A stretch of DNA of 64,000 nucleotides, from positions 7,866,501 through 7,930,500 of the forward strand of contig OX439043.1 of assembly GCA_949317995.1 (NCBI GenBank), written 5' to 3'. The DNA comes from Acholoe squamosa. Taxonomy: Eukaryota; Annelida; Polychaeta; Phyllodocida; Polynoidae. Both the position numbers and the translations under genes were made by a program. Position 1 is the first letter of the stretch. Each line of letters starts with the position of its first letter. Shown here piece after piece: positions 12,809 to 44,468 of this stretch. Below the pieces are notes generated by a model. The model had not been told where the DNA came from. It searched no databases and saw nothing but the letters and a program-made list of their open reading frames with translations.

Positions 12809-13306
12809 CTATAGCAAACTACAGCAATCACACTTTTTATCAACTGAAGCTGCATCGGTTTCCTTTCTTTCTGATTGTGCAATGCCATCTGGCGGTGATA
12901 CACGTTCTGACAGCACAATACGTGTGACTGCGTCAAACAGTTCCTTAACCCCTTCTCCTGTCAGTGCTGAGCACACAAAATGGCCCTTGGCATCAATACT
13001 TCTGGCCATTCTCTGACCCTCCTGGATGGTTATAGGAGCTTGTCTGTGCGCTTGCAAATACCTAAGTGTTTCGGGGTCGTTGCGAAGATCTGTTTTGCAA
13101 CCGACAACAACGATAGGAACATCTGGGCAATGGTTCTTCACCTCTGGATACCACTTGTATGATATGTTCTCAAGAGATGAGGGGCTAGGAACATCATAAC
13201 AGATTAAGAAGATGTCGGTCTGTGGGTAGCTGAGTGGACGCAGTCTGTCGTAGTCTTCCTGACCAGCAGTATCCCATAGACCAAGGTGACATTCCTGTGC
13301 ATCAAC
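12809..13306 (-). CDS. Exon 8: Rho GTPase core, C-terminus and CaaX box
   Basis: 166 codons including the stop. It encodes [20 protein letters not shown] (G3/switch II), [32 protein letters not shown] (G4; CKTD also occurs in RhoD-like members), a Rho-type insert helix region and [14 protein letters not shown] (G5). It ends [10 protein letters not shown]. The last residue Leu predicts geranylgeranylation, and the two extra Cys could be palmitoylated. The catalytic Gln of AGQE is present, so it should hydrolyse GTP. Confidence 0.9.
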   Translation of the reverse strand, partial: VDAQECHLGLWDTAGQEDYDRLRPLSYPQTDIFLICYDVPSPSSLENISYKWYPEVKNHCPDVPIVVVGCKTDLRNDPETLRYLQAHRQAPITIQEGQRMARSIDAKGHFVCSALTGEGVKELFDAVTRIVLSERVSPPDGIAQSERKETDAASVDKKCDCCSLL

Positions 13307-16300: not shown

Positions 16301-19300
16301 CCTTTAAGCCATTTGAGAGAAAACCTAATTAAACTCTAGATGTTTCAAGGGATAGGTAGTATGAGTGATAGGCAGACTAAGGAATAGGCAGTATGTGGGA
16401 GAGGTAGAGCCATACGCAAGCAGAGTACTTGTCAGGTTCGGATAGGCACACATTAGGATATGTAGATTCAGGTATTGACTTTGATTAGCATGTTGCATCT
16501 ATAAATAGTTCCAATCATTTTCAATATAACTTTTGTACATTTTTAAAATATTCTCATCATCAAACCTCCTTTTTAGGTACCTTTGGTCAAATTTTGAGAA
16601 TCAGGATCACAAATTCTGGATTCAGCAGGATTTTCTGGTATAGGTGGCCCCTTGTTTCCATTTGATATCACTCTGATAAAGATTCCTGACATCTCTATAA
16701 ACCCCCTTATCCTACATAGGACTCAATACTGAACACAAAAGGGAGCCTACTTTGAAGGGGGGGTAAAGGGGGGGGGGCCTGTTACACTGTGTCCATAGGT
16801 AAAGCTCTGAGTTTCATCTCCTATCTATTGAAGCTTCTTGATTACATGACTATAGGGTGACTCACAGTGCTTTTACTGAATATTCCTGTTCTGATATCCC
16901 TGCATAGCAACAGGCTTTGGGGTGGATATTGGCACTATTTGGGGTAGATATCGGCACTGTTTGGAGTGGATATCAGCACTATTCTTGGGACATGAACGAA
17001 TTTAAAACTGTCCCATGTAGTAAGGTGACCAACCACAGCATACAGCCGCTACTCAACAGTAGCACGAGAGAGTGTGTAGTATGGCTAGGTCTGTACAAGG
17101 CAAATGCTGCTGTCAGTCACCTAACTACATGGGGTAGTGGTTAGCGCACTGGACTCCAAGTTCATAGGTTGAATGTTCAAGTCCCGTAGTGGGTGGATTG
17201 TTTTAAATTTGTTCATGCCCAAAGAGTAGTGTTGGTATCTACTTTAAATCGTGTATGGTATATGATATTCAAACGTTTGCGTTTGAAACGTTTTTAAACG
17301 TTCTAAATGCAAATGTTTGTATCTAAAAAGTTTTTAAAAAAATTTAAACCTTCTAGATGCAAACGTTTTTGTTTAACCCATACAAAAAATGTTTGAAAAA
17401 GTTTTGTAAACATTATGTAACATATCTAAACCTTTCCGGTGTTTCCTGTATGCCCTGTTAGGTGGAGGCACTATCCCATTATGATATATAGTGATTATCT
17501 TGTTGTAGATATATGATGGTGGGGAGTGATAAGCTATTGGGAAGTCTGATAGCTGGACAACATATCTAATTAATGTTTAATTCAATATAGTGATAGCTTG
17601 TTTGTTATCTTCATTAATTGCATTATGCCTATATGTATATTGTGCTGATGGACACCTTTTGTGTAGAAGTTAGAAAAAATGTAGGTCCAATCTCTGTTAC
17701 CCTGAATATGAACTGGAATGGACAGGACTCTCTTGCTACACATGCATGGAGGACTATATACTGCACTGTGTGGGAGAATAATTGTAATGTCCCATCTTAA
17801 TAAACCAATGCCCCTCCACCATTATCATTCTATGATACAAACGTGAATACTTCTATATAAAACTAGACCTGAAAGTCATATATGGAGAAAAATATAGGGC
17901 CATTACAGGCATGATTGGTGACAGAAAAACACGTTATAAAACGTTGAATAAAAACGTTTATGTATAACGTTTTTAAATGTTATACATAACGTTTTTAACG
18001 GGTTTTTTTGTTATCTATATATAGATAACAGTCATTGAAGGTTACTGAACTCGGCATACACGCTCATGCAATAACCTTCGATACAAGGCATTCGTTGACC
18101 GTTATCCATACATTACTTATTTAGTAACATATTGTAGCTCCATGCATGGAATAAGCTAGTGCCCAGAATGTAAACTGAGTTCAAAACCCATGAATTTCAG
18201 TATAATTGAACGCCAGTAGTATATACATGCAAACTGAGCGCAATGGATTAGCTACTAACTAGGTCATGACCTACTGGTAGACCGGAAGTGACCTAGTTTT
18301 AACCAATCAGAGGGCTGGATTTGACAGGAAGTGACGTCATAAGGTCATGACCTAGTTTTTTCGACCAATCAGAGAGCTGGATTCCATTTGACCTAGTGAC
18401 CTGACCTAGTTGCATAAATTAAAAGAATTGTGCAATACCTAGAGCTGACCTACTTACAAACCGGAAGTGACCTACTAACCTACTTGCAAAAACGTATGAC
18501 CTACGTATGAGGGTGTATTGTGCAATCCTTGAAAGAAATTACACAATAACCATGACTCATTTTCTGATGCAATGTTCCTATGAATTTACGCAATACTTAT
18601 GACTCACTATTTTGATATGAGATTAAATGCAACAAAGACACAACTCGGTTTTTTTAATTCAATCTTTTTATTTTTTTCTTCCTATCAGAGTACATGCTAG
18701 GTATGAATCATTATAATCAGATATGCTTTGCAAGCAGAGTACATGGATATTATATGGAAAATGAATTCTTGTTGCAGTACCAACTGCACCCGGTCTTGGC
18801 TGGAGTAGGACTTTGACTACGGTCCTCTAAGGCCCGCATTCTCTCCATTAAATCCTTCAAGGCCTTTCTTCCTATGTCGTTCTCCTCCAGGGCTACCACT
18901 TTGTCCATTAACTCGGCCATGATGATGAGAATCTTGTCTATTACTTCCGCCGTGCTCTGAAGCCCGTCTATCACGTCCAGTTCACGTTTAACTTTTCCTT
19001 TCACCAAAAGATTGCTCACGTCTGCTTTGACTGCTACTTCTTCTGGACTCATCTCGAAATTCATTGCCTCTTCTTCTCTCTTTTTCTCAGGAAGGGCCTG
19101 ACTATTTTGTCCATTAAGTTGAAGGGGACCTGAGAAAACCTTTTCACAGTGTGGTGTGGATCCTTGGTCCGACATGTTTCTATGAGGAAGTTAATGCAGT
19201 GGGCTCCACACGTTTTAGCGTAAAAGTTTTGCACTTGTTTTCTGCTGAACGACCCGTGACCATCTGACGACTTTTGCATGAACCTCTGGTGATATATAGT

Positions 19301-22300
19301 AAACGGAGGTAAGCCATAGGGATCAAAGTAGAATACATTCCCGTTATGAGAAACGTAAAATGCCACCCAGTGCTGACCAGGTTTAGAGCTTGGATCTGTG
19401 TTACTGACGAAACATGTAGAGGGAATTGGTTTTTTAGGACATTGATTACTGGCAAAAGTTCCCAGGTAGAACCGCCTTGTGTGTGGATGGTTTCCCAGTG
19501 CACCTGTTATGTCTGAAGTTCTCATTTTTTTTCTCAGTTCATGTGGTAGTCTGTGACAGGAAGACAGTCAGCCGTTAGTTGGATGTTGTTGTCGTAGAAG
19601 GAACACAAGACGGCAGATATGGCGTGAGTAGTCGGGGCGGCAAACCTAAGGGAAATGCCCAGCTTTCCTTGCTTGATGAGATTTATACGACTGTCTTCAG
19701 GTGCTCTGTCTGGGGTGAGGTCGAAAACAAAGAAGGAATATCCATCTTTGAAATCTTCCAAAGTTATGCCACAGTCTTGCCCCAAAGCCGACAGCCCACT
19801 GTCTATGAACATTTGACTGTAGGCTCTGATGCAGTTGCCTGTTTCGAAGTCGGTCTTCAACTCAAACTTTTGATCGTCATATCTCACGCATATTTCCTTC
19901 ACGTTGAAATGCCTGCAGTTGAAAGGATTTTCTGTCTTAGTCCCAGCAGCTGCTGTTTCCTTTATCATACACAAGACTATCCTGGTGGGGATCTGAGTAG
20001 TGTCAGGTTGAGTCCAACTGTAGTCTTGTGAGCCGCCGTCCAAAGTGTGTTTAGTTACTTTACACCTGGCTATGTGATAGTTGAAAGGGCCCCAATGTGG
20101 ATTCCTGACACTGCTGACGTGAGTTTTCACCACCTCGTCGTCGACACATTTTTGGAGAAGTGTCATTTCAGCTTTGGTGATTTTGACCCAGTAGTTTTGA
20201 TCGGCTGCTTGCATCATGTAGTAATTGGGCTGATTTTTTTCAAATATGAACTTGATTTCACAGTTCGGAGGCAGCACCTTGCACTGTTTAATTAAATCCA
20301 GGTGCGGCTTCATTACTAAGGCATGCTTGTTGCGGGCACTGAACTCTGCTCTCCGTGCCGTCCATCCAGCATTTTCGCCCGCTCTGGCTTCCATGTGACC
20401 ACAGGTGTCTTTCATGTACTTTTGACACCCTTTCAACCGAGTCTCTTTGTCTTCTTTGTTGCAACAAATTGTGTCCAAAATGTAGGCCTTGAGACCATAG
20501 TCTTCATTGTTGCCGGTGACTTTCTCCCCATTTATCAGCAACTGGCAGGAAGCAAAGAGAGCGTGTGCCAAGTTGTTGACTGGAGCAGCTTCTATGCCTA
20601 CGGCAAGGTGAGTTGTTCCGTCTGCCGCCACGGCTTCCAGTTCCATGTACAGCTCAGTTTCTGAGAGGTCTGTGTACAGGTTGCTTGGTTCGAAGGTGAA
20701 GTCAAATGATTCAGTGTGTGGAGTCAGGGCATTGTTGGTAGTTTTGGTTATTTTTTGACATTTTAATATGTCCTTTTGAGTGACAGGCAAGGCGTGTAGG
20801 TCTAGTTCACCTACTGCACATACCTGACCCTTGGGATGAAGGAGACTCATGACTAGAACAAGGTCCTTCCTCTAGCTTGTCCTCTGCCTCTGCCGCGTTG
20901 CCCCTTACGTCCTCCGCGCTTGCCGGTTGCTCGTCGTTTGACTGGAGGAGGTTCAGATGTACCTTTTATGTATCCTTGAGCAGAAGAAGCAGCCCTTTTG
21001 AGTAAGTTCTTCCCTGTAGCTTTACTTCTCCTAACTACACTTTTCTTGAAGCCTTTTCCTGTTACCACGTCGGACAAGACTCCAGCTCCTGTAGTAAGCA
21101 AGGCTTTGCCTGCAGATTTGGCAGCCGAGCGTCCTATTTTACTTAAGAGGGGAACAGCTCCTCTCAGTAAACCACCTATTAACGAACCAAGTCCGTGCCC
21201 TCTTTGTCTCCCCCTGCCACCGTACGCTGGTAAAGCACCGTTCCCAAACTGTGATTTTCTGTAGTATTCAGCGTACTGACCCCTAGGGGCCAGGTATGGA
21301 GGCGTTCCATAGTAGTGAAGCATGGTAATATACTCCTATCCTTGAAGAGGTCTGAAGGCAAGTACCACCGACACTGATCCGCTTTCAAATGGTATAGGTT
21401 CCCCAGTCTTGTCTCTTAAGTATATCCCTATCTGTCTGAAGGTGGTTTTAGTGACTGGCAGATATATCAAGTTCTGGAAACTTATGGTCTGCATGTCACC
21501 GTTGTAGCGATTTATGTTGATTTGCCTCAGAAGGGGTGCTTTAGAATCACCCACAAGACTGTGCTTGACTATGTCAGAGTACACGAAAGCACATCGACTT
21601 TTGAACTGAAGGTCTACCACGTAGGGGCTTTGTGTCTTTCCACTTAGGAAAACACTTCCGTCAAAACCTAATTGTTTCCCTAAGTTTTCTGGGAGTTGCA
21701 TGACCACACCAGGAGGCAAGGAAACTACACTTTTCATTGTGTATTTGTTGTAGTGAAACACGGTGGCTTTGTTGTTTTTCCTGTAGTTTCTTAGTTTTCT
21801 CACCAACATGCTCTGTAGTTTATTTATGGTCCTGTTCAAGTATCCTATCAACTCTGAGTTGCTTTCCAGGTTCACACCTTCTAAGGCAAACATATTGTAG
21901 ATACTACCTTCCTTGAAGTAATACTTAGACAGGTATCTGCTAATTTCCTTGAAGCGTGTACATATTTTCACAGCCTGTAACTGACTGGGAGAGAGCGGAG
22001 AAACATTAGCAGAGTCTGTGAAGACGGCCTTTTCTTCAAAAAAAGAAAGAGACCTTTTTTCCCTGTCATCCATAGACATCTCTTCAGCCACAGCCGACGA
22101 TATTTCCCTTTTCTCTCTGCCTGCCGTGTCACGCTCCCCCTTAGCCTCCTCCTCTTCCTTTTCCTCCTTCTCTGGCGTGGGTTGGTTAGAAGTGAATCCT
22201 CCAGATGGCGTCTCAGTCGCAGCAGCAGGAGTTGGTGGACTTTCACTTGCAGGACCAGCAGGAGGAATGGTTTCAGTCGATCCCACAGGGTTGACATGAC

Positions 22301-37143: not shown

Positions 37144-40100
37144 GGTGTGTGTGTGTGGGTGTGTGTGTGTGTGTAAGAGATATGCCAAATGAAATTTAAA
37201 ATCATAAGTTGCAACATACTTTCAAAGCTAAAGTTACTCAAATATGCAGGGGCGTAGGAAAAGGGGGGGCCAGGGGGGCCTGGGCCCCCCCAATCATGAA
37301 GGAGGTGGGGCCTGAGTATGTCTGGGCCCCCCCAATATTTTCCAAGAACTCATAAACACAATGGAAAAGAAGCTAAAACTTTACATCTCAAATTAGATTA
37401 TTATGGTGATGTCATAGGGAAAATGGGGGTCTGAGCCTAAAGTCAGATCCAAAATTTACCAAAAGTTACTTTTCTATATGAATTCTATATAGGCATTAAA
37501 TAGACGCCATCACGCATTAGCCGACAATTCAAGGTGGTCACGACGGTGCCCTCGCTGGGCCCCCCCAATGAAGATTTGCTTCCTACGCCTCTGAATATGT
37601 CAACTATAAGATTCTAAATAGTAATGACTTACCTAAACCATGTTACAGAGCCACCAGGATTAGACCTGCAATCAAGAAAACCATCCAGTCATCAAAAACG
37701 TTATACAGCATTCCAGATGCTGTGGTCGGGGCCAAATGCTATAGAATGTTTAGGCATTGTTTTGACGTAAAAGAACTTTTTTATTAGCTAGGCAAAGACT
37801 ACATTAGCTACTCATCATCTTATTTTAAATGAATCAAGAGAGTTTAGATTCATCTATAATCCAGGATACGTAAGATCCTATACTCACATCACTAAACTTG
37901 AGATGAGACTTTTGCCACCATGAACCGTTTTGTGTAGACAAACATCTAGGTCATCCTGAAGTGGATGAGGGCTTTGATTGCCGCACTGTAGATCAAACAG
38001 CTGAATACATACTCTGCTTTGTCTCATGTACCTGTTCGTCCACTCAGATAGGTCTTTGACATCAACCTGACCAAACCTCATTCGGATATTGAGCCACGTA
38101 TCATGCTCAATTAGTATGTTATCAAGATGATCTTGGGTTTTTTCCTGAAGAAGACAGTTAAGGAAGCCTATAATGCTCACATTATGTGTTCTATTCCAGT
38201 TAACAACAAACCTGTCTGCCTTTGTTCCAAGCTTGGAGAGTGCACCCAACAGTGCCAGCCAACATCCAGTGTCAAGAAACTGATCTAGTGGTTTCCATTT
38301 CCCTGTAGCTAGTTGGCTGGCAGTGACATGCAAATGTGTTAGTTCTGGAAGGAATGTGAGAGTTATTTTTCCCTGTTCATTGTTTGTGGGGTCTACCACT
38401 GCGGACTTGTTATGCTGTGCAATAGCTTGGCATGCATCTTCGGGACAGGATGTATAGATACAGATTCCATCGGTTGTCTCCTGTATTTCAGTCCACCTTG
38501 TACCACCAGTGCCATAGACTGTTTGACAAGTTCCACCTCCCTCAAGGCTAAGGGGGAACAGAGGAAACGAAGGGAAAAACAATACATCAGGTGTTTTGTG
38601 CATGTTGATATCTTTCACATAAGATCTAGAGCAGCGACAATGGTGCCCACTACTTGCAACCAGTTTGGAATATTTGAAACTGGGCCTATAATCAAAATGC
38701 ATTTTCTGTGATAGATATCAGATAGTATTTAATCTTTACAGGGTCATGGGTTGCATATTTTTGACCATTATGATATATGCTTCTTTAATTTACTGTACCT
38801 ATTATGTTTGTGACACTGACACAAAACTAAAACAGAGCATTCAGAAAATTTCCATACTATTTTGAAGGGAGAAGGCATTTGATGCTGTTGCTGAAGAGTG
38901 AAGGCTGAAATTCTCCTGGAACCTCATTGATGCATTCAAGTATGTGCTTCATGACCACCAAGTCCCTAGTCATGATGTAGAAAAGGCCTGCGGCTTGAGA
39001 ATTCTTGGCATTCTTTCGATAGAAGCATCTGATTTGATCCCAGAGGAGTTTTACTTTGGCTGAGAGTTTTGGTGCTTCCAAGTTCTCAACATGGTCGGCT
39101 GTTGGAAGGAGCACCTGTAAATGTCCATCGCTATTCATCAAAGATTTCACTGCATGTTGTATCTGGTGTATCTTTTTAAGATGTTCATTATCAGGATGTT
39201 TCACTTGTTCATATTTACCTGGTATTGACTGCAGAAGAAGTGTTGCTTGGATCATGTTAGACAACTTTTGTACCTGATTTTTGTTTCGACCAAGGTAACT
39301 GAACAGCATCCTCTGCACATTGCGGAGTTGTTGGCAGCAGCACAGAAGCAAACCAAAGTGCTCAAATGTTTTGTCTGTTAATTTTTTAAGTGCACATGTG
39401 GCGAAAAATTCTAGGAACACTATGTGCGTGAAATGCCATTCTACCACACGTTGGTACCTTTCATTGAATGCATTTCTCACCTCAAGAAATGCAAGGAGTG
39501 GGTTTCTTTTATCAATACCAAATCTTTCAAGAAGATCCTCTTTCAGGGACCTGCTGTCTTTTAAGATGGCAAAGAGACACATGTTATAGAATCTCAGGGA
39601 TTGATTTTCCAAATCAATCTCTGGTGATAGATCATCTTGATTGCCCTGGCTATTCTTGTTCTTTTCCAACTGCCGTTCAGTCAATGTCATCACTAGTGCG
39701 CGAAGAATGTCTATTTTGCTTAATGTTTGTCCTTCAGTTGGTCTTAGTGTCCCATTGGATGTTACTACACTGAAAATGTGTGTGAACATGGGATTTGTGA
39801 GAATATGATCCAGATTGTATTTGTTGTTCACTGTATAATCCAAGAGAGCCTTGTCTGGTTGGTCACGACACTTGCTGTAAAAGTTCTTCACATACTGTAG
39901 ACCATCATCAAGGGTGAATCCATCAACTTTCATACGCCTGTCAAAGTGGTCTTCTTTGATTGGGCAGAGCCCTGACTTACAAGCCACTAGCATGGTAACA
40001 TTTGTACTACCCTTGTGAGTTTCTTCTACCATTTCTCTCAAAATCCTAGAAGTCTCCTGATCTCGACACTCATCAAGGTTGTCTGCAATAATGAGCACTC

Positions 40101-43100
40101 TGAACTGTTTGTTGCAAAGATGGTCCATTATCTCATTCTTTTCTTCATCACCTACTAGACTCTGCCAAATGGATTCCTTGATATTATCTTTTGTTGATGC
40201 CCCTGGAGCCAGCTTCAGAGTTGACAAGTTCAGAAGTATGACCAGATCCCAATCTCGTTCCTCTTCCTTATGTATGCTCCATTCATAAGCAATACGCTTG
40301 ACAGTTGTCGACTTTCCAGATCCAGTTGGTCCTGACAAGAGAACTGTTCGTAGTTTTGGGTTCCCAGGTTCAACTTTAAGTATTTTCTCCGGAGGAATAT
40401 CTTTCCTATCTCTGGAACAGGAAAGAGGAATGTCTCAGACCAAATGCTGCTTTTGGTTGGATATATTTAGGAAGGGATTCTCTCAGAGAGCTCAATATTG
40501 TACATCAGATTAGTACAACACTAGTTCAAAATGTGCCCAAGGTATGCGCTATAGGATTGTCTAAAGTGCAGAGCGCTACTTATATACAGGGTGAATCTTA
40601 TACATGGGGTATTATATGGTAGATTGAAAGGGCAGATTGTATGGAGGAAAAAAGCTAATTGAATCAGAATCTGCCTGAACAAAGTAGATGTCATCAGTCT
40701 TTGAGGATCAAAGTTGGATCATACTTAGGAAGGTTTTGGGAAATACTAACATTGATAGTATTTGAATAATTTGGATAGCATTATTATATTATTGGGTAAC
40801 AACTGCAACATTTACCTCAAGTATCCATCTTCATATGCTGCCACATTGACATAGCAGTCATTGATGTCATATGGTATACCCAGCTCCTTCAGGTCAAACA
40901 GGTGACCCGTCATCATGGACCGGGTGTAGAAGTCACTTTGCACCTTAATCGCTGGAAAGAAGTATAACATGTTTATCTCTCTAATGCCCAATCTGTTTAT
41001 GGAATCAACCGCAGAAAGCCCCTGTCCCTTTGTCCTGCTTTTCCTATTGAAATGTATAGGAACCCTGGACAATTCCCCCCCTTCTCCTACACGTGTGTCA
41101 CTAGTGGATCACCCTCAGTTATGGTGGCTGGCAGGGATTGGTAGTTCAGCATTTGAACACCAGGGGTCACTTTTTTACAATAGCACTATGGATAAACGAA
41201 ACATGCAAATTTCAGGAAGGCCAAGGCTTGGATTTGAACCCTCCTGAGAGTAAGGCAGATGCCCTACACATGAGCCATGAGGACTGCTGTATGTGACCAC
41301 CTTCAAGAAGCTACACAATCTACATGTCAGCAACCTAGCTATTTCCTTATATAATACTATTTGTTATTTCAATCATCCAAAACATAAGAAATATGCCTGG
41401 GACCATATGTCAATATTGTAATTACTACAAAGATATGCACAAAATCTAAGTGCTAAAGAAATTAAGAGCAGATTCAATTACTTTTTTATATGAATCTGGG
41501 GATTTATGTGACAAATCACTATATAATCTATATAGCATTGAATCTTCTGTATCTCAAAAATATGCATGGGACGACCCCGATATTATTTTTGCACATATGA
41601 AAAGTACATGTCCATTTTGGGACTATGGTGAGAATATGGCGAAAATCTAATTACTCTTTGCCTATCCCCACCAGCCACCTTAATATACCAAGGAAAATCC
41701 TGGGGATCAGGAGAGGAACCAGATTTCAAGTAGCAAGGAAATACTGTTTTCACTATTATCTAACAATGACCTGTAAGTTTCAGTGGCGGATACAGGGGGG
41801 GGCCGAACGGGCCTTGCCCCCCCCCCCAAAAAAAAAAAAAAAAAAGGAGAAGGAGGAGGAGGAAGAGAAGAGAGAGGGAGAGGGGAAAGGAAAGGAGATG
41901 GAGGCAGTTATTTGAATATAGGGTTCCATATACCATTAGAAAGCTTTAATCATCAGGAAATGACCTGTTGGGTTCTCTTATATGTGCAATAAAAACTGAA
42001 TTTCTTTCATGATTTTGAAATAATTATTTCTGTCCTCCAATATTCAAAAAACACCTTCCAGCCCACCTCCCAGAATGACCCTCAGTTCTAAATTGCACTT
42101 TACCCTAATGCCACATCATTGGAACTCATGCTTAACCTTTTGGAGAAAGTACATAAGGTTGACACAATGCATGTACATTGTATCATTGTATATCACCAGG
42201 GTTCCATGTACAGACCACATTGATGGTATCTACAGGCTTAACCTGGGTGGTTAGTTGCACATGTATGATCATTGATCCTAAGGGCTAAGTACATGTATGA
42301 TGGACATTGGATGATCTGGGGTAACAGACAGAAGAATTTGTGCAAATTTGCTTCAGAATGCACCATTTGGTCACTAGATTTCAGTCTTTTAGGGTCATAT
42401 CTCCCCCATCCCCCCTCAACATGTTTTATCACTTAAGCCCTAGGATCACATATTAGGGGAGGTCTTGCCCTCAAAACAAAATCTTATCAGGGCCTAGAAA
42501 ATGTGTCATCTATTTTTAAAAAGCACCAGAATGCACCTTTTGTCCTGGCATTTTTCAAAATTTTTCCTGGGGTTCCCCTATACCCCACTACTTCCATCCT
42601 CACAACAATATACCCAGCCAGCACTTCATATTCCAGCACAGATCATTATACACTAAAGAAATTACCCTTTTCCCTCTTCAGGTGACACAATAATATCCTC
42701 TCCCCCATTCTCTTTCCCCCGAACCTTTTTTTTCAAACTTCAAATGGTTCCAGAGCCCTTGATTTCTTTAGGGGAGTAGGGGTGATACCAATCTATATGT
42801 AGTGCCAAAATGCCTCAGATTGCATCATTTCAACTCTTAGATTTCAACTTTCTCTTGGGGGCTAAGCCCCCAAACCCCCATCCTTTCAATTATCATAAGC
42901 TTAATACAAATGCCCTATTTCATATGGTGTTCAATGATGTACCAGAATGGAATATTTCTTGTAGAGATCTTCAATGCATTCTGTTTGTGTAGGGAAGGAG
43001 ATATACAGGCCACCTATTCATCAAGAATTGTTAACATAAAAACTGATTTCTCACTTAAATTTTACAAGACCTGAGACTTTATATGTTCAGTTAGAATGCA

Positions 43101-44468
43101 TAAGAATGCACCATTTCAAGTCTAAACCCTCAAAATTTTCTTGGGGGGGGGCATGCCCCCAAACCCCTCTAGCTTGACCGCTGCGCGAGACATGTAACAC
43201 TCCTAACACTTTCACCAGGTCTTGCCCCCCCCCTCTAGAGAATCCTGGATCCGCCACTGAGTTTGTAATTTATTAACTTTGATCCCTTATTTGGAGGGAA
43301 GAATGATGTCTTAAAAACAATGTACTTTTGTAATTGAAGGCAAAGTACTGGATGTATAACTCATTGAATAAGCTTATGATATGGTATCTTGCTAAGAAGA
43401 GATTACAGTTAGTTTTAACACTTACCGTCCTTTAGTTTTTCAGATAGCGTTCCATACTGCTGATTGCTCCCTTGTTTAGGTTCATCCTGCTTACTTCCAA
43501 CAGCCTCAGTCTTGCCAAATTGCTCTGGGCTTAACTTCAGAATTTGGCTGATGATATGTTCCTGACTGTCCAAGTATAGAGCTCTAAGGAAAGCATTCAG
43601 CTTCCATTTGGGGTTTTTCAGGAGCCAGGATATCATTTTCTGTACTTGTTCATAGTTTGTGCCTTGCTTCTGTACGGTTGAAAATAAATCTATTTAGACA
43701 GAGCTCTGATAAATAGTACAACATTCAAGTATGTTTCATTAGGATTATCTTATCAACATCATCAATATATTTTCATTGTCATAAAACTACAACAATATGG
43801 TGGCCTCCTTGTTTGTGTGTGGTGGCTACCTGGGGGACAGGTGACCTAGATGAGACTATGCAGGCCTGCCCCCTATGTGAGTCCCAGGGTAGCACACAAA
43901 TATACAGTAGCAGAACCGCTACATATATATACGGTTCTGAGATAATTATAACACCCATATATATGTTCTCAATACAGGATATTTTATTTTCATCAGGGTT
44001 GAACCATTATTTTACCCTGTCTTCATGTGTACACAGGCTTATTATTTCACAATATTTTTACACAACATTATCCTATTTCACTTTCACAATACATGAAAAG
44101 AGACCTATCATATTTCAAATGAATGTACAAAGGCTCATCATATTTTCACAGTGCATGTACATAGCCTTTTCGCAAAACATTTTCATAATACATTTTGATA
44201 GACTGATCATACATTACAATACATATAGGCTTATGATATTTCACAATAGATGTATTGTAAAAAAAAAAAGCCTTACCAGTGTGGCAGCCATCTTCTGATC
44301 CAGTACATCTAATGTGATGAGATGGGGCCAGAGGTCATCCATCCGTACATTGTCAGCCAGGTCTGCCAAGTTTTTGTTCAGTAACTTCTTCAGTGGTTCA
44401 CATTTATTAACAATTTCTTGTTCTGATGGGTTGTCTGGTGCCCAGCATGGATTCCCTGTGGTCACCAT
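12809..44468 (-). CDS. CARD-NACHT-Rho GTPase fusion gene (NLR-like), eight exons, 1201 residues predicted
   Basis: Exons 44468-44277, 43669-43426, 40951-40816, 40411-38923, 38705-37888, 37665-37633, 36955-36760 and 13306-12809 total 3606 nt, an exact 1202-codon frame in which every phase matches. Approximate layout: CARD 20-125, linker 145-190, NACHT 210-690 (P-loop GPTGSGKST 218-226, Walker [10 protein letters not shown] about 297-305, NLR-type helix [14 protein letters not shown]), unrecognised 690-960, Rho GTPase 994-1201 ([23 protein letters not shown], CaaX CSLL). NLR proteins oligomerise on signal and recruit CARD partners. A prenylated Rho tail would place it at a membrane, which is inference. 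The exon 4-5 junction is the least certain. If unused, the NACHT frame would end at the stop at 38857-38859. No leucine-rich repeats are visible. Confidence 0.8.
13307..14530. other. Part of intron 7, nothing recognised
   Basis: AT-rich intronic DNA between Rho exon 8 and the foldback repeat. A minus-strand open frame of 107 codons at 13468-13791 has no recognisable domain and looks incidental. Confidence 0.5.
14531..16776. repeat. Foldback: inverted repeat with arms of about 970 bp around a 314-bp loop
   Basis: The left arm (14531-15496) and the right arm (15811-16776) are reverse complements with scattered differences. For example, the sequence around GATATCACTCTGATAAAG recurs in both arms at mirrored distances. 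The arms hold a degenerate minisatellite of CCTATCC(CTCA) words. The outer edges are C-rich on the left and G-rich on the right. No coding frame was found. It lies in intron 7 of the Rho fusion gene, so its transcript would fold into a long hairpin. Confidence 0.85.
16777..18208. other. Intron 7 between the foldback and Polinton 1
   Basis: No gene. It contains the tRNA-like head at 17127-17196 and two AAACGTTTTTAAACG-rich blocks (about 17260-17425 and 17925-18005) that look like degraded MITEs with AACGTT words. Confidence 0.5.
17127..17196 (+). repeat. tRNA-derived SINE head
   Basis: It has a pol III A box (TAGTGGTTAGCGC at about 17135) and B box (GTTCAAGTCCC at about 17175) at tRNA spacing, but no convincing cloverleaf stems. 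The following AT-rich stretch fits a SINE body. Confidence 0.55.
18209..18214. repeat. Target-site duplication AACGCC, left
   Basis: Identical to 36622-36627. The 6-bp length matches Polinton integration. Confidence 0.9.
18215..18615 (+). repeat. Left TIR of Polinton 1, dense in transcription-factor motifs
   Basis: About 400 bp, mirrored at 36215-36621. It contains a CRE palindrome TGACGTCA (18332-18339) and ETS-type CCGGAAGTGAC (18282-18292, 18461-18471). It also has CCAAT within ACCAATCAGAG (18303, 18365) and AP-1 TGACTCA (18553, 18600). The nuclear-receptor palindrome AGGTCATGACCT occurs twice (18261-18272, 18342-18353), with about seven further TGACCT half-sites. It probably combines recombination end, replication end and promoter for the late cluster, which is inference. 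Confidence 0.85.
18750..19064 (-). CDS. Polinton 1 coiled-coil protein of 104 residues, function unknown
   Basis: The ATG at 19064 overlaps the protease stop as ATGA, suggesting coupled expression or a compact late transcript. An upstream in-frame ATG at 19175 is possible. The middle is heptad-like and acidic ([20 protein letters not shown]), followed by [11 protein letters not shown]. The C-terminus is short and Cys-containing (GCSWYCNKN). It is the gene closest to the left TIR. I do not recognise a family. A scaffold or accessory virion protein is possible. Confidence 0.6.
   Translation of the reverse strand: MNFEMSPEEVAVKADVSNLLVKGKVKRELDVIDGLQSTAEVIDKILIIMAELMDKVVALEENDIGRKALKDLMERMRALEDRSQSPTPAKTGCSWYCNKNSFSI
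19061..19525 (-). CDS. Polinton adenain-like cysteine protease (PRO)
   Basis: 154 residues, typical for the family. The catalytic triad order His-Asp-Cys is visible: GQHWVAFYV (His), [11 protein letters not shown] (Asp) and [11 protein letters not shown] (Cys). A Gln before the nucleophile region is also present. The family, related to adenovirus and Ulp1 proteases, processes capsid precursors. It lies directly downstream of the capsid gene. Confidence 0.9.
   Translation of the reverse strand: MRTSDITGALGNHPHTRRFYLGTFASNQCPKKPIPSTCFVSNTDPSSKPGQHWVAFYVSHNGNVFYFDPYGLPPFTIYHQRFMQKSSDGHGSFSRKQVQNFYAKTCGAHCINFLIETCRTKDPHHTVKRFSQVPFNLMDKIVRPFLRKREKKRQ
19534..20850 (-). CDS. Polinton major capsid protein (double jelly-roll)
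   Basis: 438 residues, a usual length for Polinton hexon-like capsids. The C-terminal signature is visible: [29 protein letters not shown] and [14 protein letters not shown]. It matches the family pattern of a DLT strand, then a 'GxLxIxLxF' strand, then a final strand. It would form the trimeric capsomer. It sits between the protease and the basic core protein, the usual morphogenetic order. Confidence 0.88.
   Translation of the reverse strand: MSLLHPKGQVCAVGELDLHALPVTQKDILKCQKITKTTNNALTPHTESFDFTFEPSNLYTDLSETELYMELEAVAADGTTHLAVGIEAAPVNNLAHALFASCQLLINGEKVTGNNEDYGLKAYILDTICCNKEDKETRLKGCQKYMKDTCGHMEARAGENAGWTARRAEFSARNKHALVMKPHLDLIKQCKVLPPNCEIKFIFEKNQPNYYMMQAADQNYWVKITKAEMTLLQKCVDDEVVKTHVSSVRNPHWGPFNYHIARCKVTKHTLDGGSQDYSWTQPDTTQIPTRIVLCMIKETAAAGTKTENPFNCRHFNVKEICVRYDDQKFELKTDFETGNCIRAYSQMFIDSGLSALGQDCGITLEDFKDGYSFFVFDLTPDRAPEDSRINLIKQGKLGISLRFAAPTTHAISAVLCSFYDNNIQLTADCLPVTDYHMN
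20853..21323 (-). CDS. Polinton basic core protein with amphipathic helix (pVI/pX-like)
   Basis: 156 residues. The N-terminus is Tyr- and Gly-rich. Next comes a Gly/Leu-rich amphipathic segment ([20 protein letters not shown]) like membrane-active minor proteins. The C-terminus is very basic ([19 protein letters not shown]) and suited to DNA packing. The start is 2 bp from the capsid frame's upstream region. The assignment is by composition and position. Confidence 0.6.
   Translation of the reverse strand: MLHYYGTPPYLAPRGQYAEYYRKSQFGNGALPAYGGRGRQRGHGLGSLIGGLLRGAVPLLSKIGRSAAKSAGKALLTTGAGVLSDVVTGKGFKKSVVRRSKATGKNLLKRAASSAQGYIKGTSEPPPVKRRATGKRGGRKGQRGRGRGQARGRTLF
21336..22673 (-). CDS. F54H12.2-like Polinton structural protein, candidate minor capsid/penton
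   Basis: 445 residues from the ATG at 22673. The N-terminus [20 protein letters not shown], followed by [20 protein letters not shown] and [14 protein letters not shown], matches the conserved opening of the F54H12.2-like family found in Polintons across animals. The middle is a disordered Glu/Lys-rich stretch. The C-terminal half is beta-rich ([13 protein letters not shown]). A penton-like role is inferred from location and family. Confidence 0.75.
   Translation of the reverse strand: MAFTLTLPSNSSMNVFPDNTLTSYNTILAEYINSPTQLECALQEITCPTTWYNVKEEPILLVQGENDLTNNLRSVVALLNKRRREFFPLEKPGAHSVFSRASSSTSNLSAQSALKRGVKITKNLRHVNPVGSTETIPPAGPASESPPTPAAATETPSGGFTSNQPTPEKEEKEEEEAKGERDTAGREKREISSAVAEEMSMDDREKRSLSFFEEKAVFTDSANVSPLSPSQLQAVKICTRFKEISRYLSKYYFKEGSIYNMFALEGVNLESNSELIGYLNRTINKLQSMLVRKLRNYRKNNKATVFHYNKYTMKSVVSLPPGVVMQLPENLGKQLGFDGSVFLSGKTQSPYVVDLQFKSRCAFVYSDIVKHSLVGDSKAPLLRQININRYNGDMQTISFQNLIYLPVTKTTFRQIGIYLRDKTGEPIPFESGSVSVVLAFRPLQG
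22658..23737 (-). CDS. Polinton retroviral-type integrase with C-terminal chromodomain
   Basis: 359 residues. The DDE core is visible: [11 protein letters not shown] (Asp 1), [11 protein letters not shown] (Asp 2) and [12 protein letters not shown] (Glu). The C-terminus is a chromodomain ([35 protein letters not shown]), as known for Polinton c-integrases. It is thought to direct insertion to marked chromatin. Its 3' end overlaps the start of the next gene by 16 bp. Confidence 0.93.
   Translation of the reverse strand: MAHKALKKDVLRFYTDPKQPGSFTSVSKLQRHHFKKTKKKNIEQALEDVDAYTRHKPYKRRFPRRKTQTWGIDKQWQLDLIDMREFSKENKGYQYILAGIDVFSRYGFGQPVKSKRADDVTEAFKKMSKERKPQQIQTDKGKEFVNKIFKKHCEDQKINFFTGENDDVKCALAERFNSTLQGKMWRCFSHFNNYKWVDLLPDLVKSYNLTYHKALGAAPSDINKDNSEVLFYRLYDQPQKKKVPVLQLKRKNQVRMLKTKKTFNRGYEPNWTEEIYTVDNISPKGYHLKDLLGEEIKGSFYEPEVQKVQVRHGRRYNIEKIVKYRGKGKKREALIKWKGYGDKFNSWEPVKNINKWRLP
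23719..23895 (-). CDS. Polinton small basic protein, 58 residues
   Basis: The ATG at 23895 opens [17 protein letters not shown] nuclear-localisation-like [11 protein letters not shown] lies near the C-terminus. Highly basic, it could be a DNA-condensing core protein. The frame overlaps the integrase start by 19 bp. Real expression is unproven. Confidence 0.5.
   Translation of the reverse strand: MRAVKRLNPTLKFVKNKSAFAGHSPSFAASPLKRASPIKKRKVSQKGTGRKFIWRTRL
23912..24673 (-). CDS. Polinton conserved protein of 253 residues, function unknown
   Basis: The N-terminus is Pro-rich and helical. An Ala/Gly run and a long acidic stretch ([11 protein letters not shown]) follow. The C-terminal module [40 protein letters not shown] and DITDLLAFA is a module I associate with many Polintons. 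The acidic middle suggests binding to the basic core proteins. That is inference. Confidence 0.65.
   Translation of the reverse strand: MSYSRMALVRADLVPREKKPSFVSPSSPPQPGPSVQDQYYSTQLLREGLTPDSSLVQVLNHLQSKAHEVLNSPNLKLKEKLRQYNQLMIKSGILTKKAKALGQRREGPYPGRAVGQGPAGAAAAAAGGVNNSLEDTDDGDDDADHTFTETRDDPPLPDDSDGDSVDEFKGEEGFKPRARDNTEGMDADIKERIPASYRTTAKNLYRELSRHGSQILNWNRDGEIYVNGERVPGTDITDLLAFAARPVFEKGPT
24681..25046 (-). CDS. Polinton small protein with C-terminal hydrophobic tail
   Basis: 121 residues. It has a basic helical body and ends [20 protein letters not shown], a Gly-flanked hydrophobic segment typical of small Polinton minor virion proteins with membrane activity. It starts 8 bp before the next frame. 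Confidence 0.6.
   Translation of the reverse strand: MVTKRSPSGGKFKTIRKHYHLLKHISKCSSAECSHIIKGLSDEVIRLMSQICVNVMNKNLLRNESDAVKRLSPYKKELKSVTRHKATVKQKRKTFEQKGGFLGTILGLALPLITGLIGARR
25048..25736 (-). pseudogene. Polinton FtsK/HerA-type packaging ATPase region
   Basis: Starts at the ATG of MDHKEKEII. Walker A is [14 protein letters not shown] and Walker B is [11 protein letters not shown], followed by [14 protein letters not shown]. The family's NPRD signature, [10 protein letters not shown], and a terminal [12 protein letters not shown] block are present. The enzyme pumps DNA into capsids. The region is counted among the element's breaks. Confidence 0.85.
25750..26379 (-). CDS. Polinton tandem Death-domain protein
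   Basis: 209 residues from the ATG at 26379. Two death-fold repeats are visible. The first has [31 protein letters not shown] and [16 protein letters not shown]. The second has [29 protein letters not shown] and [18 protein letters not shown]. Both follow the Death-domain pattern of helix 1, 'W/Y-x-x-L-a-x-x-L-g', 'xLxxW' and a final 'L.x.g..d.a'. Such a protein could interfere with host death-fold assemblies. It has its own TATA box upstream and lies next to the ATPase. Host capture is inferred. Confidence 0.75.
   Translation of the reverse strand: MEFHLSDELLFKVSEKISEKDYPRLGVYLGLRLSLMDYMEKIPSLRSMGREMLISWSRKNVRCKWMVLRHALSDIGRYDLTDYCRWYMGYYNVVDHCEIPPEQWKVDTLFVNLADKFEMLDWRKLGTQLGMSDHELNLISTPVPGKKGVTNPVFEVLMVWKYREISHPSCLIASLYNMGLSDVALYVEGLNKGSTGLKEDEVAPLVTLV
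26380..26815. promoter_or_regulatory. Spacer with TATA box and inverted GGGTA / TACCC arrays
   Basis: A minus-strand TATA box (TATATAAG, about 26466-26474) lies roughly 90 bp before the Death-domain ATG. Next to it are about eleven GGGTA repeats (26474-26530), a GGGTGGGTGGG tract, and about six CCCTA repeats (26684-26715) facing them. The arms could pair, or form G-quadruplexes. The same spacer with different repeat counts is in element 2. Confidence 0.65.
26816..27439 (-). CDS. Polinton unrecognised helical protein, 207 residues
   Basis: Starts [14 protein letters not shown]. Largely alpha-helical with Cys in the N-terminal third ([19 protein letters not shown]) and a long helix [20 protein letters not shown]. 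It is conserved as an open frame in element 2, so it is a real gene. A TATA box (TATAAA, 27493-27498) lies about 55 bp upstream. No family is recognised. Confidence 0.7.
   Translation of the reverse strand: MSRYFLQRVLEQRHPDDTQVLTYVRERNEIICCSSICFRYVCKYLKECVLHRKKLYLVFSSVQSSFTSKDRKTLRKMVLSHNLSKFSAVETLGYALKHGRKGKGPLKNPFHVEALKAAEEHHAKENPRLLNQRLHFFMSILELLAECLETKTLFSSCPIFHIPSSSLDRFSVEEKEKVWFYLAMWCTQLISLTHCFHHNQLALHSTS
27493..27498 (-). promoter_or_regulatory. TATA box for the 207-residue gene
   Basis: TATAAAGG on the minus strand, 54 bp before the ATG at 27439. Kept in element 2. Confidence 0.6.
27675..28331 (-). CDS. Polinton unrecognised protein, 218 residues
   Basis: Starts [20 protein letters not shown]. 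The C-terminal third reads [20 protein letters not shown] and then [14 protein letters not shown]. The last motif resembles the closing strand of BECR-fold RNases (a hydrophobic strand ending T-A-Y/F-P), but the resemblance is weak. The frame is intact in element 2. It faces the SIM-rich gene across a divergent promoter region of about 400 bp. Confidence 0.7.
   Translation of the reverse strand: MANFCPLPLSLTVGHKRRQEVFISDIRRGVEEGKVWAVWKFCPENLNRDLYIPPNCNFKQCFLHNQTTALVPGGPSVKKLISENGESFFSGVLLGHGAMVHLMSRHSISSGSSKKFISDRQKPFFLRDQPLGGGPGNSVFIDSTMVKALIKATLLQPDKITHSLGSKIFYERGFRTEIGHNYHGCCHVVRVITEITTSHEKGQLKVVTAYPVSNFWSS
28332..28729. promoter_or_regulatory. Divergent promoter region between left- and right-reading gene sets
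   Basis: A plus-strand TATA box (TATAAAG, 28612-28618) lies 118 bp before the ATG at 28730 and serves the SIM-rich gene. No TATA box was seen for the leftward gene. Paired AACGTT-type words lie near 28428-28445. The arrangement is the same in element 2. Confidence 0.55.
28730..30133 (+). CDS. Polinton SIM-rich nuclear protein with PC4-like C-terminal domain
   Basis: 467 residues from the first ATG, 28730 (context ACAATGCC). Three SUMO-interacting motifs lie in a disordered Pro/Ser region: KVIDLT (about 140-145), EVVDLT (about 155-160) and EVIDLT (about 176-181). Each is followed by Ser/Thr and Pro. A nuclear-localisation stretch [12 protein letters not shown] follows near 216. A folded region around 305-361 ([32 protein letters not shown]) resembles the PC4/p15 single-strand DNA-binding fold. 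A role in replication or in controlling SUMO-dependent nuclear bodies is inferred. It is directly upstream of PolB. Confidence 0.75.
   Translation: MPGRMKTGLSVRRGGAKKLAPLTFTTSKQTVEKASGIAPPPTSPASPDKPPATPARLPTEVPDAGEQEAALAALHGEITDFLDRVRDRSPQEAGDGDFDIREYINPPAPLNYQPPTETPTSASYSPVTPEEPSPQVSPIKVIDLTTSSPAVKPIEVVDLTQGTPSPAHRGGYSQVEVIDLTGPSPLYSLPVPVEELLLKSPPEKRNCSSEKEGEPKKKRQKRAYHKKTPVSTPASDSSATSSYGAEPIGSVPGVPSPKDKSHRQKFGEGTAPSSSSKLVGFRSVPLVVKKWPARFGFQEKSPAPNQVFYPEGDNNACIEIYREPSIRGVCLRTYLDKPYERCLNLEAREFRNLVDQIECILGKYKELHRLAALGERKVDNLLLSLNQDCTDPSGGRAMVLVNLYKGTPKVHIGTTSYVEEMNASVSSSFRMPPSATHCGHTVSPFILEDIKSRVGPFLDETTDFYSG
30134..30364. promoter_or_regulatory. Intergenic leader before PolB
   Basis: 230 bp without a frame, AT-rich, with TATAGAACATAAAG about 50 bp before the PolB ATG as a possible TATA-like element. 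Confidence 0.35.
30365..34508 (+). pseudogene. Polinton protein-primed-type DNA polymerase B region (element 1)
   Basis: N-terminal Cys pairs ([12 protein letters not shown]) and an OTU-like block ([13 protein letters not shown], then HVSLITNM) come first. A C2H2 finger ([19 protein letters not shown]), exonuclease motifs ([17 protein letters not shown]) and palm motif A ([13 protein letters not shown]) follow. Then come the family-specific [12 protein letters not shown], motif B ([10 protein letters not shown]) and motif C ([11 protein letters not shown]). It replicates the linear element with protein priming. This copy is counted among the element's breaks. The element 2 copy is one open frame. 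Confidence 0.9.
34560..35060. repeat. 81-bp palindrome-bearing tandem array in Polinton 1
   Basis: About five to six copies of an 81-bp unit. Each contains the perfect palindrome TTTGAACAATTGTTCAAA and wider inverted arms TGTTCATTTGAACAA / TTGTTCAAATGAACA, then CCCCATAGAAAACAGTGTT. It is AT-rich and lies between PolB and the terminal gene. Conserved in element 2 at 54680-55170. Cruciform-forming arrays of this type could act as a replication or control region (inference). Confidence 0.8.
35315..36187 (+). CDS. Polinton Cys-rich terminal protein, 290 residues
   Basis: Start chosen at the ATG of [20 protein letters not shown] because element 2 opens there. An ATG 47 codons upstream, at 35174, is specific to this copy. 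Many Cys residues occur in pairs ([24 protein letters not shown]), and the C-terminus is a zinc-ribbon-like [10 protein letters not shown] / FICKYCV. No family is recognised. It is the gene closest to the right TIR and reads toward it. Confidence 0.7.
   Translation: MESLEAMLVEQTTETPPYDYYMRPVLQSVASYNQASSITPDNDISSVACGCSENFFWEIIPAKNIGYFRGAEPDTVDHCITSVKMYKYFSSAFWDAYRNCMYYCRVKKVNLIMHDWCIGVYQLHTEPGCPRHYTRYTLGSVRKFALTLQELECNPIVGVFCQCNCKLEVSAIAKTICFTCLQVSLELHALSIPGVKNHFSFEVNFKDGFLSGLLPGPKNSQTYFLAQALFEHAISNIAKLNSYCFHNTWKTSLTGQSWYQASKFTHNKCFCSICARPGNGKSVFICKYCV
36215..36621 (-). repeat. Right TIR of Polinton 1
   Basis: Inverted copy of 18215-18615. The CRE TGACGTCA at 36497-36504 sits 117 bp from the tip, the same distance as in the left TIR and in element 2. 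The inner limit is approximate. Confidence 0.85.
36622..36627. repeat. Target-site duplication AACGCC, right
   Basis: Identical to 18209-18214. Confidence 0.9.
36760..36955 (-). CDS. Exon 7: Rho GTPase N-terminus (P-loop, switch I)
   Basis: 196 bp, from acceptor ACAAG to donor AAG/GTACTT. After a Ser/Pro-rich linker it encodes [17 protein letters not shown] and [21 protein letters not shown] is the exact RhoA-type P-loop, and TVFENY holds the switch I threonine. It ends in phase 0 and joins exon 8 to give [20 protein letters not shown], a correct Rho strand order. Confidence 0.88.
37059..37175. repeat. (AT)n(GT)n microsatellite
   Basis: About 36 AT units followed by GT repeats with GGGT interruptions, in intron 6 of the host gene. 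Confidence 0.95.
37247..37593. mobile_element. hAT-like MITE, 347 bp, 6-bp flanking duplication AATATG
   Basis: Ends CAGGGGCGTAGGAA and TTCCTACGCCTCTG are inverted. AATATG flanks both sides (37241-37246 and 37594-37599). CAGGGGCG-type termini resemble hAT elements, though 8 bp is the usual hAT duplication. Non-coding, inside intron 6. Confidence 0.7.
37633..37665 (-). CDS. Exon 6: 33-nt microexon
   Basis: Acceptor TTGCAG, donor TTTAG/GTAAGT, phase 2 to phase 2, encoding [12 protein letters not shown] with its neighbours. It is conserved in the decayed copy at 472-504, so it belongs to the ancestral gene. Confidence 0.75.
37888..38705 (-). CDS. Exon 5: 272-residue region of unknown fold
   Basis: 818 bp, from acceptor CACAG to donor GAT/GTGAGT (a strong donor), phase 0 to phase 2. 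Its frame stays open throughout and joins the microexon to make ATG in phase. The N-terminal part has clustered Cys ([11 protein letters not shown]) and Gly-rich turns (YGTGGTRW). The C-terminal part looks alpha-helical ([33 protein letters not shown]). I do not recognise it. It is not LRR, WD40, TPR or ankyrin by eye. Confidence 0.65.
38923..40411 (-). CDS. Exon 4: NACHT NTPase with NLR-type helical tail
   Basis: 497 codons. It opens [18 protein letters not shown], then [17 protein letters not shown] (Walker A). Next come [10 protein letters not shown] (the strand that in NLRs reads FLFxFREL), [13 protein letters not shown] (Walker B with the NLR-type D-x-x-D-E) and [20 protein letters not shown] (sensor-1 region). 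The C-terminal part has [11 protein letters not shown] and [18 protein letters not shown], the winged-helix/superhelical signature of NLRs. The acceptor is TTCCAG. The proposed donor is GAG/GTTCCA, a weak site. An in-frame stop 64 bp further on, at 38857-38859, is the alternative end. Confidence 0.8.
40816..40951 (-). CDS. Exon 3: linker before NACHT
   Basis: 136 bp, phase 1 to phase 2, acceptor TTTCCAG and donor GAG/GTAAAT. It encodes [20 protein letters not shown] and ends YEDGYLR. The fold is not recognised. It may be the N-terminal part of the NACHT module. Confidence 0.7.
41206..41286 (-). repeat. tRNA-derived SINE head in intron 2
   Basis: On the minus strand an A-box-like TGGCTCATGTGTAGGGC is followed at tRNA spacing by a B box GGGTTCAAATCC. 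No good acceptor stem, so not a tRNA gene. Confidence 0.5.
41781..43259. mobile_element. hAT-like non-autonomous DNA transposon, 1.48 kb, AGTTT duplication
   Basis: Ends CAGTGGCGGATACAGG and CCTGGATCCGCCACTG are inverted. AGTTT flanks both (41776-41780 and 43260-43264). Next to the ends are G-runs (left) and C-runs (right). The interior has no transposase. A solo end of the same family sits at 52706-52770. It lies in intron 2 of the host gene. Confidence 0.7.
43426..43669 (-). CDS. Exon 2: second half of the CARD and linker
   Basis: 244 bp with AG acceptor and GTAAGT donor, entering in phase 0 and leaving in phase 1. [20 protein letters not shown] plus [14 protein letters not shown] is the CARD helix 4-6 signature. 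A polar tail ([12 protein letters not shown]) links to the next exon. Confidence 0.8.
44277..44468 (-). CDS. Exon 1: first half of the CARD
   Basis: 64 codons from an ATG in the context GACATGG. The body reads [17 protein letters not shown] and continues [18 protein letters not shown], the helix 1-3 pattern of CARDs in which a 'Lxx.L' stretch is followed by a 'DxLxxxGVL' stretch. It ends in phase 0 at a GTAAGG donor. The start is supported by the same ATG in the decayed copy at 2476 and by a TATA box about 40 bp upstream. Confidence 0.8.

What the first reader, a model, noticed from the sequence alone, without database searches (positions are those of the whole stretch)
12809..44468. An NLR-like receptor that ends in a complete Rho GTPase (CARD-NACHT-unknown-Rho)
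Eight exons read by eye join with matching phases into exactly 1202 codons. Seen directly: CARD motifs, Walker A and B with NLR helix, and all five Rho G motifs plus CaaX. Known: NLRs usually end in LRR, WD40 or TPR sensor repeats. I know of no named NLR family with a C-terminal prenylatable Rho GTPase. Inference: the Rho part could be an integrated sensor of toxins that modify Rho, or an output that anchors and switches the complex at membranes.
Basis: partly seen in the sequence, partly recalled or inferred. Interest (0 to 1): 0.9.

Follow-up and report, generated by a model that had tools for sequence, protein, structure and literature searches.

The report
Immune receptors ending in Rho GTPases
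This animal genome carries a small family of genes resembling intracellular immune receptors whose tail is a complete Rho-type molecular switch, a protein that bacteria often attack, so the receptor may carry its own built-in bait.

Summary
The gene is real. Eight GT-AG exons on the minus strand (44468-12809) join into one frame of 1170 aa, not 1202 codons: CARD, NACHT, unassigned module X, complete Rho GTPase ending CSLL. The window's genome is held; three more genes there share the eight-exon order and phases: two on C1 (1169, 1177 aa), one on C9 with two open GTPase cassettes behind one receptor. The apparent stop at 38857 is a splice donor: all five loci compared share this phase-2 donor, and one lacks the stop codon. 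An 18.4 kb Polinton, with target duplication, lies in the intron that splits the Rho domain. GTPase domains are under purifying selection but differ in type: RhoA-like, Rac-leaning, degenerate. A diverged relative and seven other NLR-like loci gave no GTPase in the stretches searched. No NACHT-Rho protein was listed in three protein-database searches. Best explanation: a membrane-anchored NLR using Rho as integrated bait for Rho-modifying effectors. Architecture is nearly certain; the mechanism is inference.

The parts
44277..44468 (-). Exon 1: start codon and first half of CARD
   Evidence: found in 4 paralogous loci and in the relic copy
43426..43669 (-). Exon 2: second half of CARD
   Evidence: 86% identical in the relic copy, 48-81% in the four other close loci
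40816..40951 (-). Exon 3: linker between CARD and NACHT
   Evidence: 45 of 45 residues identical in the C9 paralogue
38858..40411 (-). Exon 4: NACHT domain ([18 protein letters not shown]) and following helical part; ends at donor AAAATA|GTATGG
37888..38547 (-). Exon 5: module X, no Pfam family above cut-off
   Evidence: related stretches in other NLR-like loci
37633..37665 (-). Exon 6: 33-nt microexon ([11 protein letters not shown])
   Evidence: (4 synonymous, 1 non-synonymous change against the relic copy)
36760..36955 (-). Exon 7: linker, Rho P-loop GDGACGKT and switch [10 protein letters not shown]
12809..13306 (-). Exon 8: Rho DTAGQ, GCKTDL, CSAL and prenylation box CSLL, stop
18215..36621 (.). 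Polinton/Maverick inserted in intron 7 (between Rho exons 7 and 8), TIRs 18215-18547 and 36289-36621, target duplication AACGCC at 18209-18214 and 36622-36627
60..2476 (-). Relic tandem copy of the same gene: exon 1 (broken frame), exon 2, start of exon 3, exon 6, exon 7 (stop in P-loop); NACHT and X exons missing; its exon 8 lies just left of the window at C9:7865783-7865394

Best explanation
One gene encodes a CARD-NACHT receptor of the NLR kind in which the C-terminal sensor region is module X followed by a full Rho-family GTPase with a prenylation box. Shown: the gene structure, its conservation in three other intact loci, purifying selection in all folded parts, intact nucleotide-binding and catalytic motifs of the Rho domain in this gene. 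Inferred: the protein is prenylated and sits on membranes; the Rho domain is an integrated copy of a favourite target of bacterial effectors; when an effector modifies or locks it, the X/NACHT part is released, NACHT oligomerises, and the CARDs recruit a CARD-bearing caspase or adaptor. Paralogues carry different versions (RhoA-like, Rac-leaning, degenerate cassettes), as expected if they watch different attacks.
For: Gene: one 1170-aa frame, all GT-AG; paralogues of 1169 and 1177 aa on C1 and a C9 gene with the same exon order and phases; exon 4-5 phase-2 donor shared by 5 of 5 loci compared, GTAAGT in the C9 paralogue, no stop in the C3 locus; omega of the GTPase 0.22-0.35 in the five comparisons made. 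Of 37 exon-8-like matches in the genome, 7 lie in these receptor loci and 29 lie over 1 Mb from any of the 82 listed NACHT matches. Bait: effectors modify switch I and Gln63/61 of Rho proteins (passages of PMC6698799, and PMC8709095); FENY or FDNY and DTAGQ or DTGGQ are kept in the window gene and both C1 genes. Types differ: C1 gene 1 best matches RhoA (275 bits), C1 gene 2 Rac1 (240, against 221 for RhoA), the window gene is between (RHO1 232, Rac1 230, RhoA 226). The C9 gene has two open GTPase cassettes and a partial third. The receptor part occurs without GTPase at the C3 locus and at other NLR-like loci as far as searched.
Against: No RNA evidence. The window gene's own exon 4 donor is weak (-0.83 bits on a simple recalled matrix). 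The Rho domain shows purifying, not positive, selection, which fits a working switch as well as a bait. The window gene has His where RhoC, Rac3 and Cdc42 have Pro before the switch I Thr, and the two C9 cassettes have lost FENY and, in one, the catalytic Gln (DTAGV), so the known target regions are not kept everywhere. On a small tree only the link of C1 gene 1 with RhoC is fairly supported (91/97); C1 gene 2 and the window gene are unresolved, and the identity of C1 gene 2 to Rac3 (60%) barely exceeds that to RhoC (57%). No relative outside this genome was found.
Confidence: 0.5

Rival explanations
1. The Rho domain is an output and anchor. On NACHT activation it is brought to membranes and loaded with GTP, so that the receptor remodels actin or drives phagocytosis directly, alongside CARD signalling.
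For: P-loop, DTAGQ/DTGGQ, GCK-DL, CSA and prenylation-type end are intact in the window gene and both C1 genes; purifying selection; prenylation-type ends in all five GTPase models (CSLL, CQIC, CQIC, CC, CC; that -CC can be prenylated is recalled from Rab proteins). A sea cucumber NLR that promotes phagocytosis through the cytoskeleton has been reported (start of abstract and passages of PMC13133943).
Against: One C9 cassette lacks the catalytic Gln and both lack the normal switch I, unexpected for a conserved output. Types differ between paralogues.
Confidence: 0.3
2. The Rho domain is an internal timer or lock: its own GTP/GDP state, set by host GEFs and GAPs, gates NACHT oligomerisation without regard to pathogens.
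For: Intact GTPase motifs in a STAND-type protein; Roco proteins pair a GTPase with an oligomerising module (recalled).
Against: Degenerate cassettes; no COR domain was listed by Pfam.
Confidence: 0.12
3. Two neighbouring genes: a CARD-NACHT gene ending at 38857 and a separate X-Rho gene.
For: In-frame TAG at 38859-38857; the exon 5 frame contains ATGs upstream of its acceptor; weak donor.
Against: Same donor position and phase in 5 of 5 loci compared and no stop in the C3 locus; strong donor GTAAGT in the C9 paralogue; the exon 5 acceptor is the best of those listed and in the matching phase; no ATG in frame upstream of the P-loop in exons 6-7.
Confidence: 0.03
4. An assembly artefact, or a dead gene.
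For: The neighbouring tandem copy is a relic with stops.
Against: The window gene has no stop in 1170 codons and the family evolves under purifying selection; the architecture recurs on two contigs.
Confidence: 0.03

Closest known systems
Mammalian CARD-NLRs (NOD1, NLRC4)
   Same: CARD followed by NACHT and a helical part (recalled); NOD1 signalling is triggered when an effector activates Rac1/Cdc42 (passage of PMC8084149)
   Different: They end in LRRs (recalled); here no LRR is listed and the Rho GTPase is part of the receptor itself
Pyrin inflammasome
   Same: Immune response triggered by Rho modification in switch I (passages of PMC6698799)
   Different: Pyrin senses RhoA inactivation indirectly (same passages) and is not an NLR with a fused Rho (recalled)
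Plant NLRs with integrated domains (NLR-ID, integrated decoy)
   Same: An extra host domain fused to an NLR (concept in passages of PMC11781737; listing and start of abstract of PMC5819176)
   Different: Plant, NB-ARC and LRR based (recalled); decoy function is tested there, here only inferred
Mytilus galloprovincialis LOC143083262 (P0044, predicted protein)
   Same: Rho-type GTPase, a Roc-COR part and two CARD stretches in one protein
   Different: Rho is N-terminal, CARDs C-terminal, Roc-COR instead of NACHT; looks like an independent joining of the same kinds of parts
Roco proteins, for example the actiniarian gene NG1 (LRR, Ras/Roc, COR, TIR)
   Same: Ras-type GTPase in a large immune-type protein (passages of PMC5094078)
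   Different: Roc with COR and TIR; no NACHT or CARD in the architecture given there
Diverse NACHT proteins of amphioxus and pearl oyster
   Same: Expanded NACHT families with unusual partners (passages of PMC2575513 and PMC9646362)
   Different: The main texts contain no whole-word Rho, Ras or GTPase; the partner lists in their supplements were not seen

Membership tests
NLR (animal, CARD class) | N-terminal death-fold domain | tested here: met
   CARD PF00619 24.3 bits alone (cut-off 23.9), paralogues 26.6, 28.6, 24.9; not listed in the window gene's full-length scan
NLR (animal, CARD class) | NACHT with Walker A and B | tested here: met
   PF05729 57.1 bits, GPTGSGKST and LIIADNLDE
NLR (animal, CARD class) | C-terminal LRRs or other known sensor repeats | tested here: not met
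   none listed by Pfam; X instead. So NLR-like rather than a standard NLR
NLR (animal, CARD class) | Ligand-driven oligomerisation and CARD signalling | not testable with these tools
   needs experiment
Rho GTPase family | Five G motifs | tested here: met
   GDGACGKT, T in YVHTVF, DTAGQ, GCKTDL, CSAL
Rho GTPase family | Rho insert, and Rho rather than Ras or Rab as nearest kin | tested here: met
   insert aligned with RhoC and Rac3; the 60 listed of 817 PDB matches are RHO1, Rho or Rac chains
Rho GTPase family | C-terminal CaaX | tested here: met
   CSLL at residues 1167-1170; prenylation itself not tested
Rho GTPase family | Free-standing small protein | tested here: not met
   part of a 1170-aa frame
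Integrated-decoy NLR | Host-target-like domain fused to an NLR | tested here: met
Integrated-decoy NLR | Fused domain modified or bound by an effector, triggering the receptor | not testable with these tools
   needs experiment
Roco | COR domain after the GTPase | tested here: not met
   no COR listed; the GTPase is C-terminal

The most novel reading that the evidence does not exclude
Animals have evolved NLRs with exchangeable, prenylated Rho-family bait domains: an animal counterpart of plant integrated-decoy receptors. One genome holds RhoA-like, Rac-leaning and catalytically altered versions on a common CARD-NACHT-X chassis, and one receptor gene carries two GTPase cassettes that could be chosen by splicing.
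Probability: 0.4. Interest if true: 0.95.

Novelty: new variant of a known kind. Interest (0 to 1): 0.86.

Why it matters
Mammals guard Rho GTPases through indirect routes (pyrin, NOD1). A receptor that carries its own Rho would make guarding of Rho directly testable in one molecule: change the Rho residues and read out the receptor. It would also extend integrated decoys, best known from plants, to animal NLRs with a diversified set of baits.

Tried and rejected
Separate-gene models were tested by looking for start codons, donors and paralogous junctions and rejected. Structure prediction of X and of the NACHT exon from single sequences gave mean pLDDT 38.9 and 36.5; I drew nothing from them and ran no fold search. 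Module X and two of its relatives matched no Pfam family above cut-off. A search with residues 147-945 (exon 3, NACHT, X) had 6286 candidates and none reached E 0.001. The whole-length search listed 54 hits, none with PF05729. The Rho-only search listed 120 of 285 hits among 908 candidates, none of the 120 with PF05729; the other 165 were not shown. These searches cover only proteins of 0.55-1.75 times the length that share short words. An intronless Rho-like frame with its own ATGs and a CRVL end lies about 17 kb downstream of a broken C10 NLR-like locus; I did not count it as a fusion. The idea that the C9 cassettes are Rab-like was dropped: their listed PDB matches are Rho and Rac chains.

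Full report
What is in the window. The minus strand carries eight exons between 44468 and 12809 that join, with GT-AG borders and end phases 0,1,2,2,2,2,0, into one frame of 1171 codons including the stop. Pfam puts NACHT at residues 212-370 (57.1 bits) and a Ras-family GTPase at 965-1136 (158.3 bits). CARD passes its cut-off only when the N-terminal part is scanned alone (24.3 against 23.9) and is not listed for the whole protein; no LRR, WD40, TPR or COR is listed. The Rho part has [43 protein letters not shown], the Rho insert and a CSLL end.

Why the Rho exons are far apart. Intron 7 splits the Rho domain and spans 36759-13307. It holds a Polinton at 18215-36621 with 333-nt terminal repeats (97% complementary) and a perfect 6-bp duplication AACGCC on both sides. 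Capsid-, integrase- and polymerase-like frames lie inside (the labels capsid and polymerase are my reading, integrase is Pfam). Without it the intron would be about 5 kb.

One gene or two. The weak point was the exon 4 donor AAAATA|GTATGG, which overlaps an in-frame TAG. The window's own genome is held (1.48 Gb, 63 contigs; window at C9:7866501-7930500) and the NACHT exon has 82 listed matches there, a lower bound. I fetched 17 tiles of 10 kb around the four closest matches and left of the window. At the exon 4 end all five loci compared share a phase-2 donor: window TA|GTATGG, C9 paralogue TA|GTAAGT, the two C1 paralogues TA|GTAGGT, C3 locus TG|GTATGT, the last with no stop codon. So the stop is a split codon. 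Further, the exon 7 frame has no ATG before the P-loop, and exon 6 extended upstream meets TGA at 37691 without an ATG.

Paralogues. Exon-wise tblastn finds exons 1-8 in order at C1:9250153-9243015 (gene 1) and C1:9262152-9255791 (gene 2), which join to 1169 and 1177 aa with the same phases. At C9:8059481-8090622 exons 1-6 are followed by three GTPase units: a partial exon 8 at 8074259, and two exon 7-8 pairs (8082742/8083356 and 8088638/8090161), each giving an open frame with exon 6 (1162 and 1169 aa). Whether both are used is unknown. A relic copy in the window (2476-60) keeps exons 1, 2, the start of 3, 6 and 7, with a stop in the P-loop; its exon 8 lies left of the window. Its microexon 6 differs by 4 synonymous and 1 non-synonymous change. 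Its exon 7 is more diverged (dS 1.26) than its exon 2 (dS 0.44), which a single block duplication does not explain simply.

Selection. Nei-Gojobori omega for the GTPase is 0.25 (C1 gene 1 - gene 2), 0.35 (window - C9 cassette c), 0.22 (window - gene 1), 0.24 (window - gene 2) and 0.35 (C9 cassettes b - c), with dS 0.94-1.33, so values are rough. In the four comparisons between different receptors NACHT gives 0.20-0.25, X 0.19-0.41, CARD 0.12-0.46; the 21-residue linker before the GTPase gives 0.36-1.02 and is not clearly constrained.

Receptors without GTPase. The C3 locus has exons 1-5 but no GTPase match at E below 0.1 in 27.5 kb plus 20 kb downstream, and contig C3 is absent from the genome-wide list of 37 exon-8 matches. 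Downstream 8-kb stretches of four further NACHT matches (L026-L029) and three short loci (L006-L008) gave no GTPase match better than E 0.28. X-like stretches do occur in L026-L029 (best E 5e-6 in L028 and 3e-5 in L029, the others 0.015 or worse; a second weak one in L028 at 0.13). Close relatives of X occur at five open places and one broken one. Of the 37 exon-8 matches 7 lie in receptor loci (window, relic, two on C1, three on C9), one lies 17-19 kb from a broken C10 NLR-like locus and is an intronless frame with its own ATGs, and 29 lie over 1 Mb from any of the 82 listed NACHT matches or on other contigs.

Types of GTPase. Best PDB matches: C1 gene 1 RhoA 275 bits; C1 gene 2 Rac1 240, RhoA 221; window RHO1 232, Rac1 230, RhoA 226; C9 cassettes RhoA 129 and RHO1 137. 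Identities over the core to RhoC, Rac3 and Cdc42 are 67/56/49 for gene 1, 57/60/54 for gene 2, 57/57/51 for the window gene, 41/38/32 and 41/40/40 for the C9 cassettes. The eight-row tree supports gene 1 with RhoC (91/97) and the two C9 cassettes together (100/99), and leaves the window gene and gene 2 open. The shared intron position argues for one capture followed by divergence, but the tree cannot decide.

Mechanism. Known: mammals respond to Rho modification through pyrin and to Rac1/Cdc42 activation through NOD1 (passages), and deamidation of Gln63/61 locks Rho proteins (passage). Which switch I residues are hit is recalled. The window gene and both C1 genes keep FENY/FDNY and the catalytic Gln, though the window gene has His in place of the Pro before the switch I Thr. 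I infer a bait that gates the NACHT. The altered C9 cassettes fit a bait or decayed copies better than a conserved output, but the intact motifs and prenylation-type ends fit an output too. Confidence in the architecture is about 0.95; in the bait mechanism about 0.5.

Novelty. No NACHT-Rho protein was listed in the protein searches. Paper searches gave, among the rows listed, no title or abstract start describing an NLR with a C-terminal Rho; each listed at most 25 papers. I saw passages of nine papers, no whole text and no supplements; the coral NLR survey of Hamada and others (2013) was seen only as a reference. The nearest analogue found is a predicted Mytilus protein, Rho-Roc-COR-CARD-CARD. 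The species of the window is not known to me; CARD, NACHT, introns and Polintons point to an animal.

Noticed in passing
window 25753-26436 (-): A Polinton frame with a Death domain by Pfam (50.2 bits, two stretches); the second Polinton has the matching stretch at 99%. A mobile element carrying a death-fold gene beside NLR-like genes. In a paper search for Polinton, Maverick and death domain the 15 listed of 140 had no 'death domain'.
   Followed up: partly
window 18215-36621 and 53073-64000: Two Polintons, mostly 98-99% alike in their long matching blocks, in opposite orientation about 16.4 kb apart, the second cut by the window end; an 81-bp tandem repeat lies in both.
   Followed up: partly
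window 14531-16776: A 966-nt inverted repeat, 96% complementary with 314 nt between the arms, in intron 7.
   Followed up: no
window 46878-49459: Blocks of 122-300 nt repeated two or three times at spacings of 622-1316 nt.
   Followed up: no
G000 C9:8074259-8090622: Three GTPase units in a row behind one receptor gene, the first partial; the two complete ones end in -CC instead of CaaX.
   Followed up: partly
L039, C10:76612176-76611472: Intronless Rho-like frame ending CRVL about 17 kb downstream of a broken NLR-like locus; possible retrocopy.
   Followed up: partly
L028, C1:122625734-122627563: One 610-aa open frame of another NLR-like locus holds one clear and one weak X-like stretch (E 5e-6 and 0.13), so X may be a repeatable C-terminal module of this receptor group.
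   Followed up: partly
P0032 and P0037 (protein database): Long proteins with an N-terminal Rho-type domain joined to a sub-threshold TIR match or to ankyrin repeats; source organism not given, my guess is intracellular bacteria.
   Followed up: no
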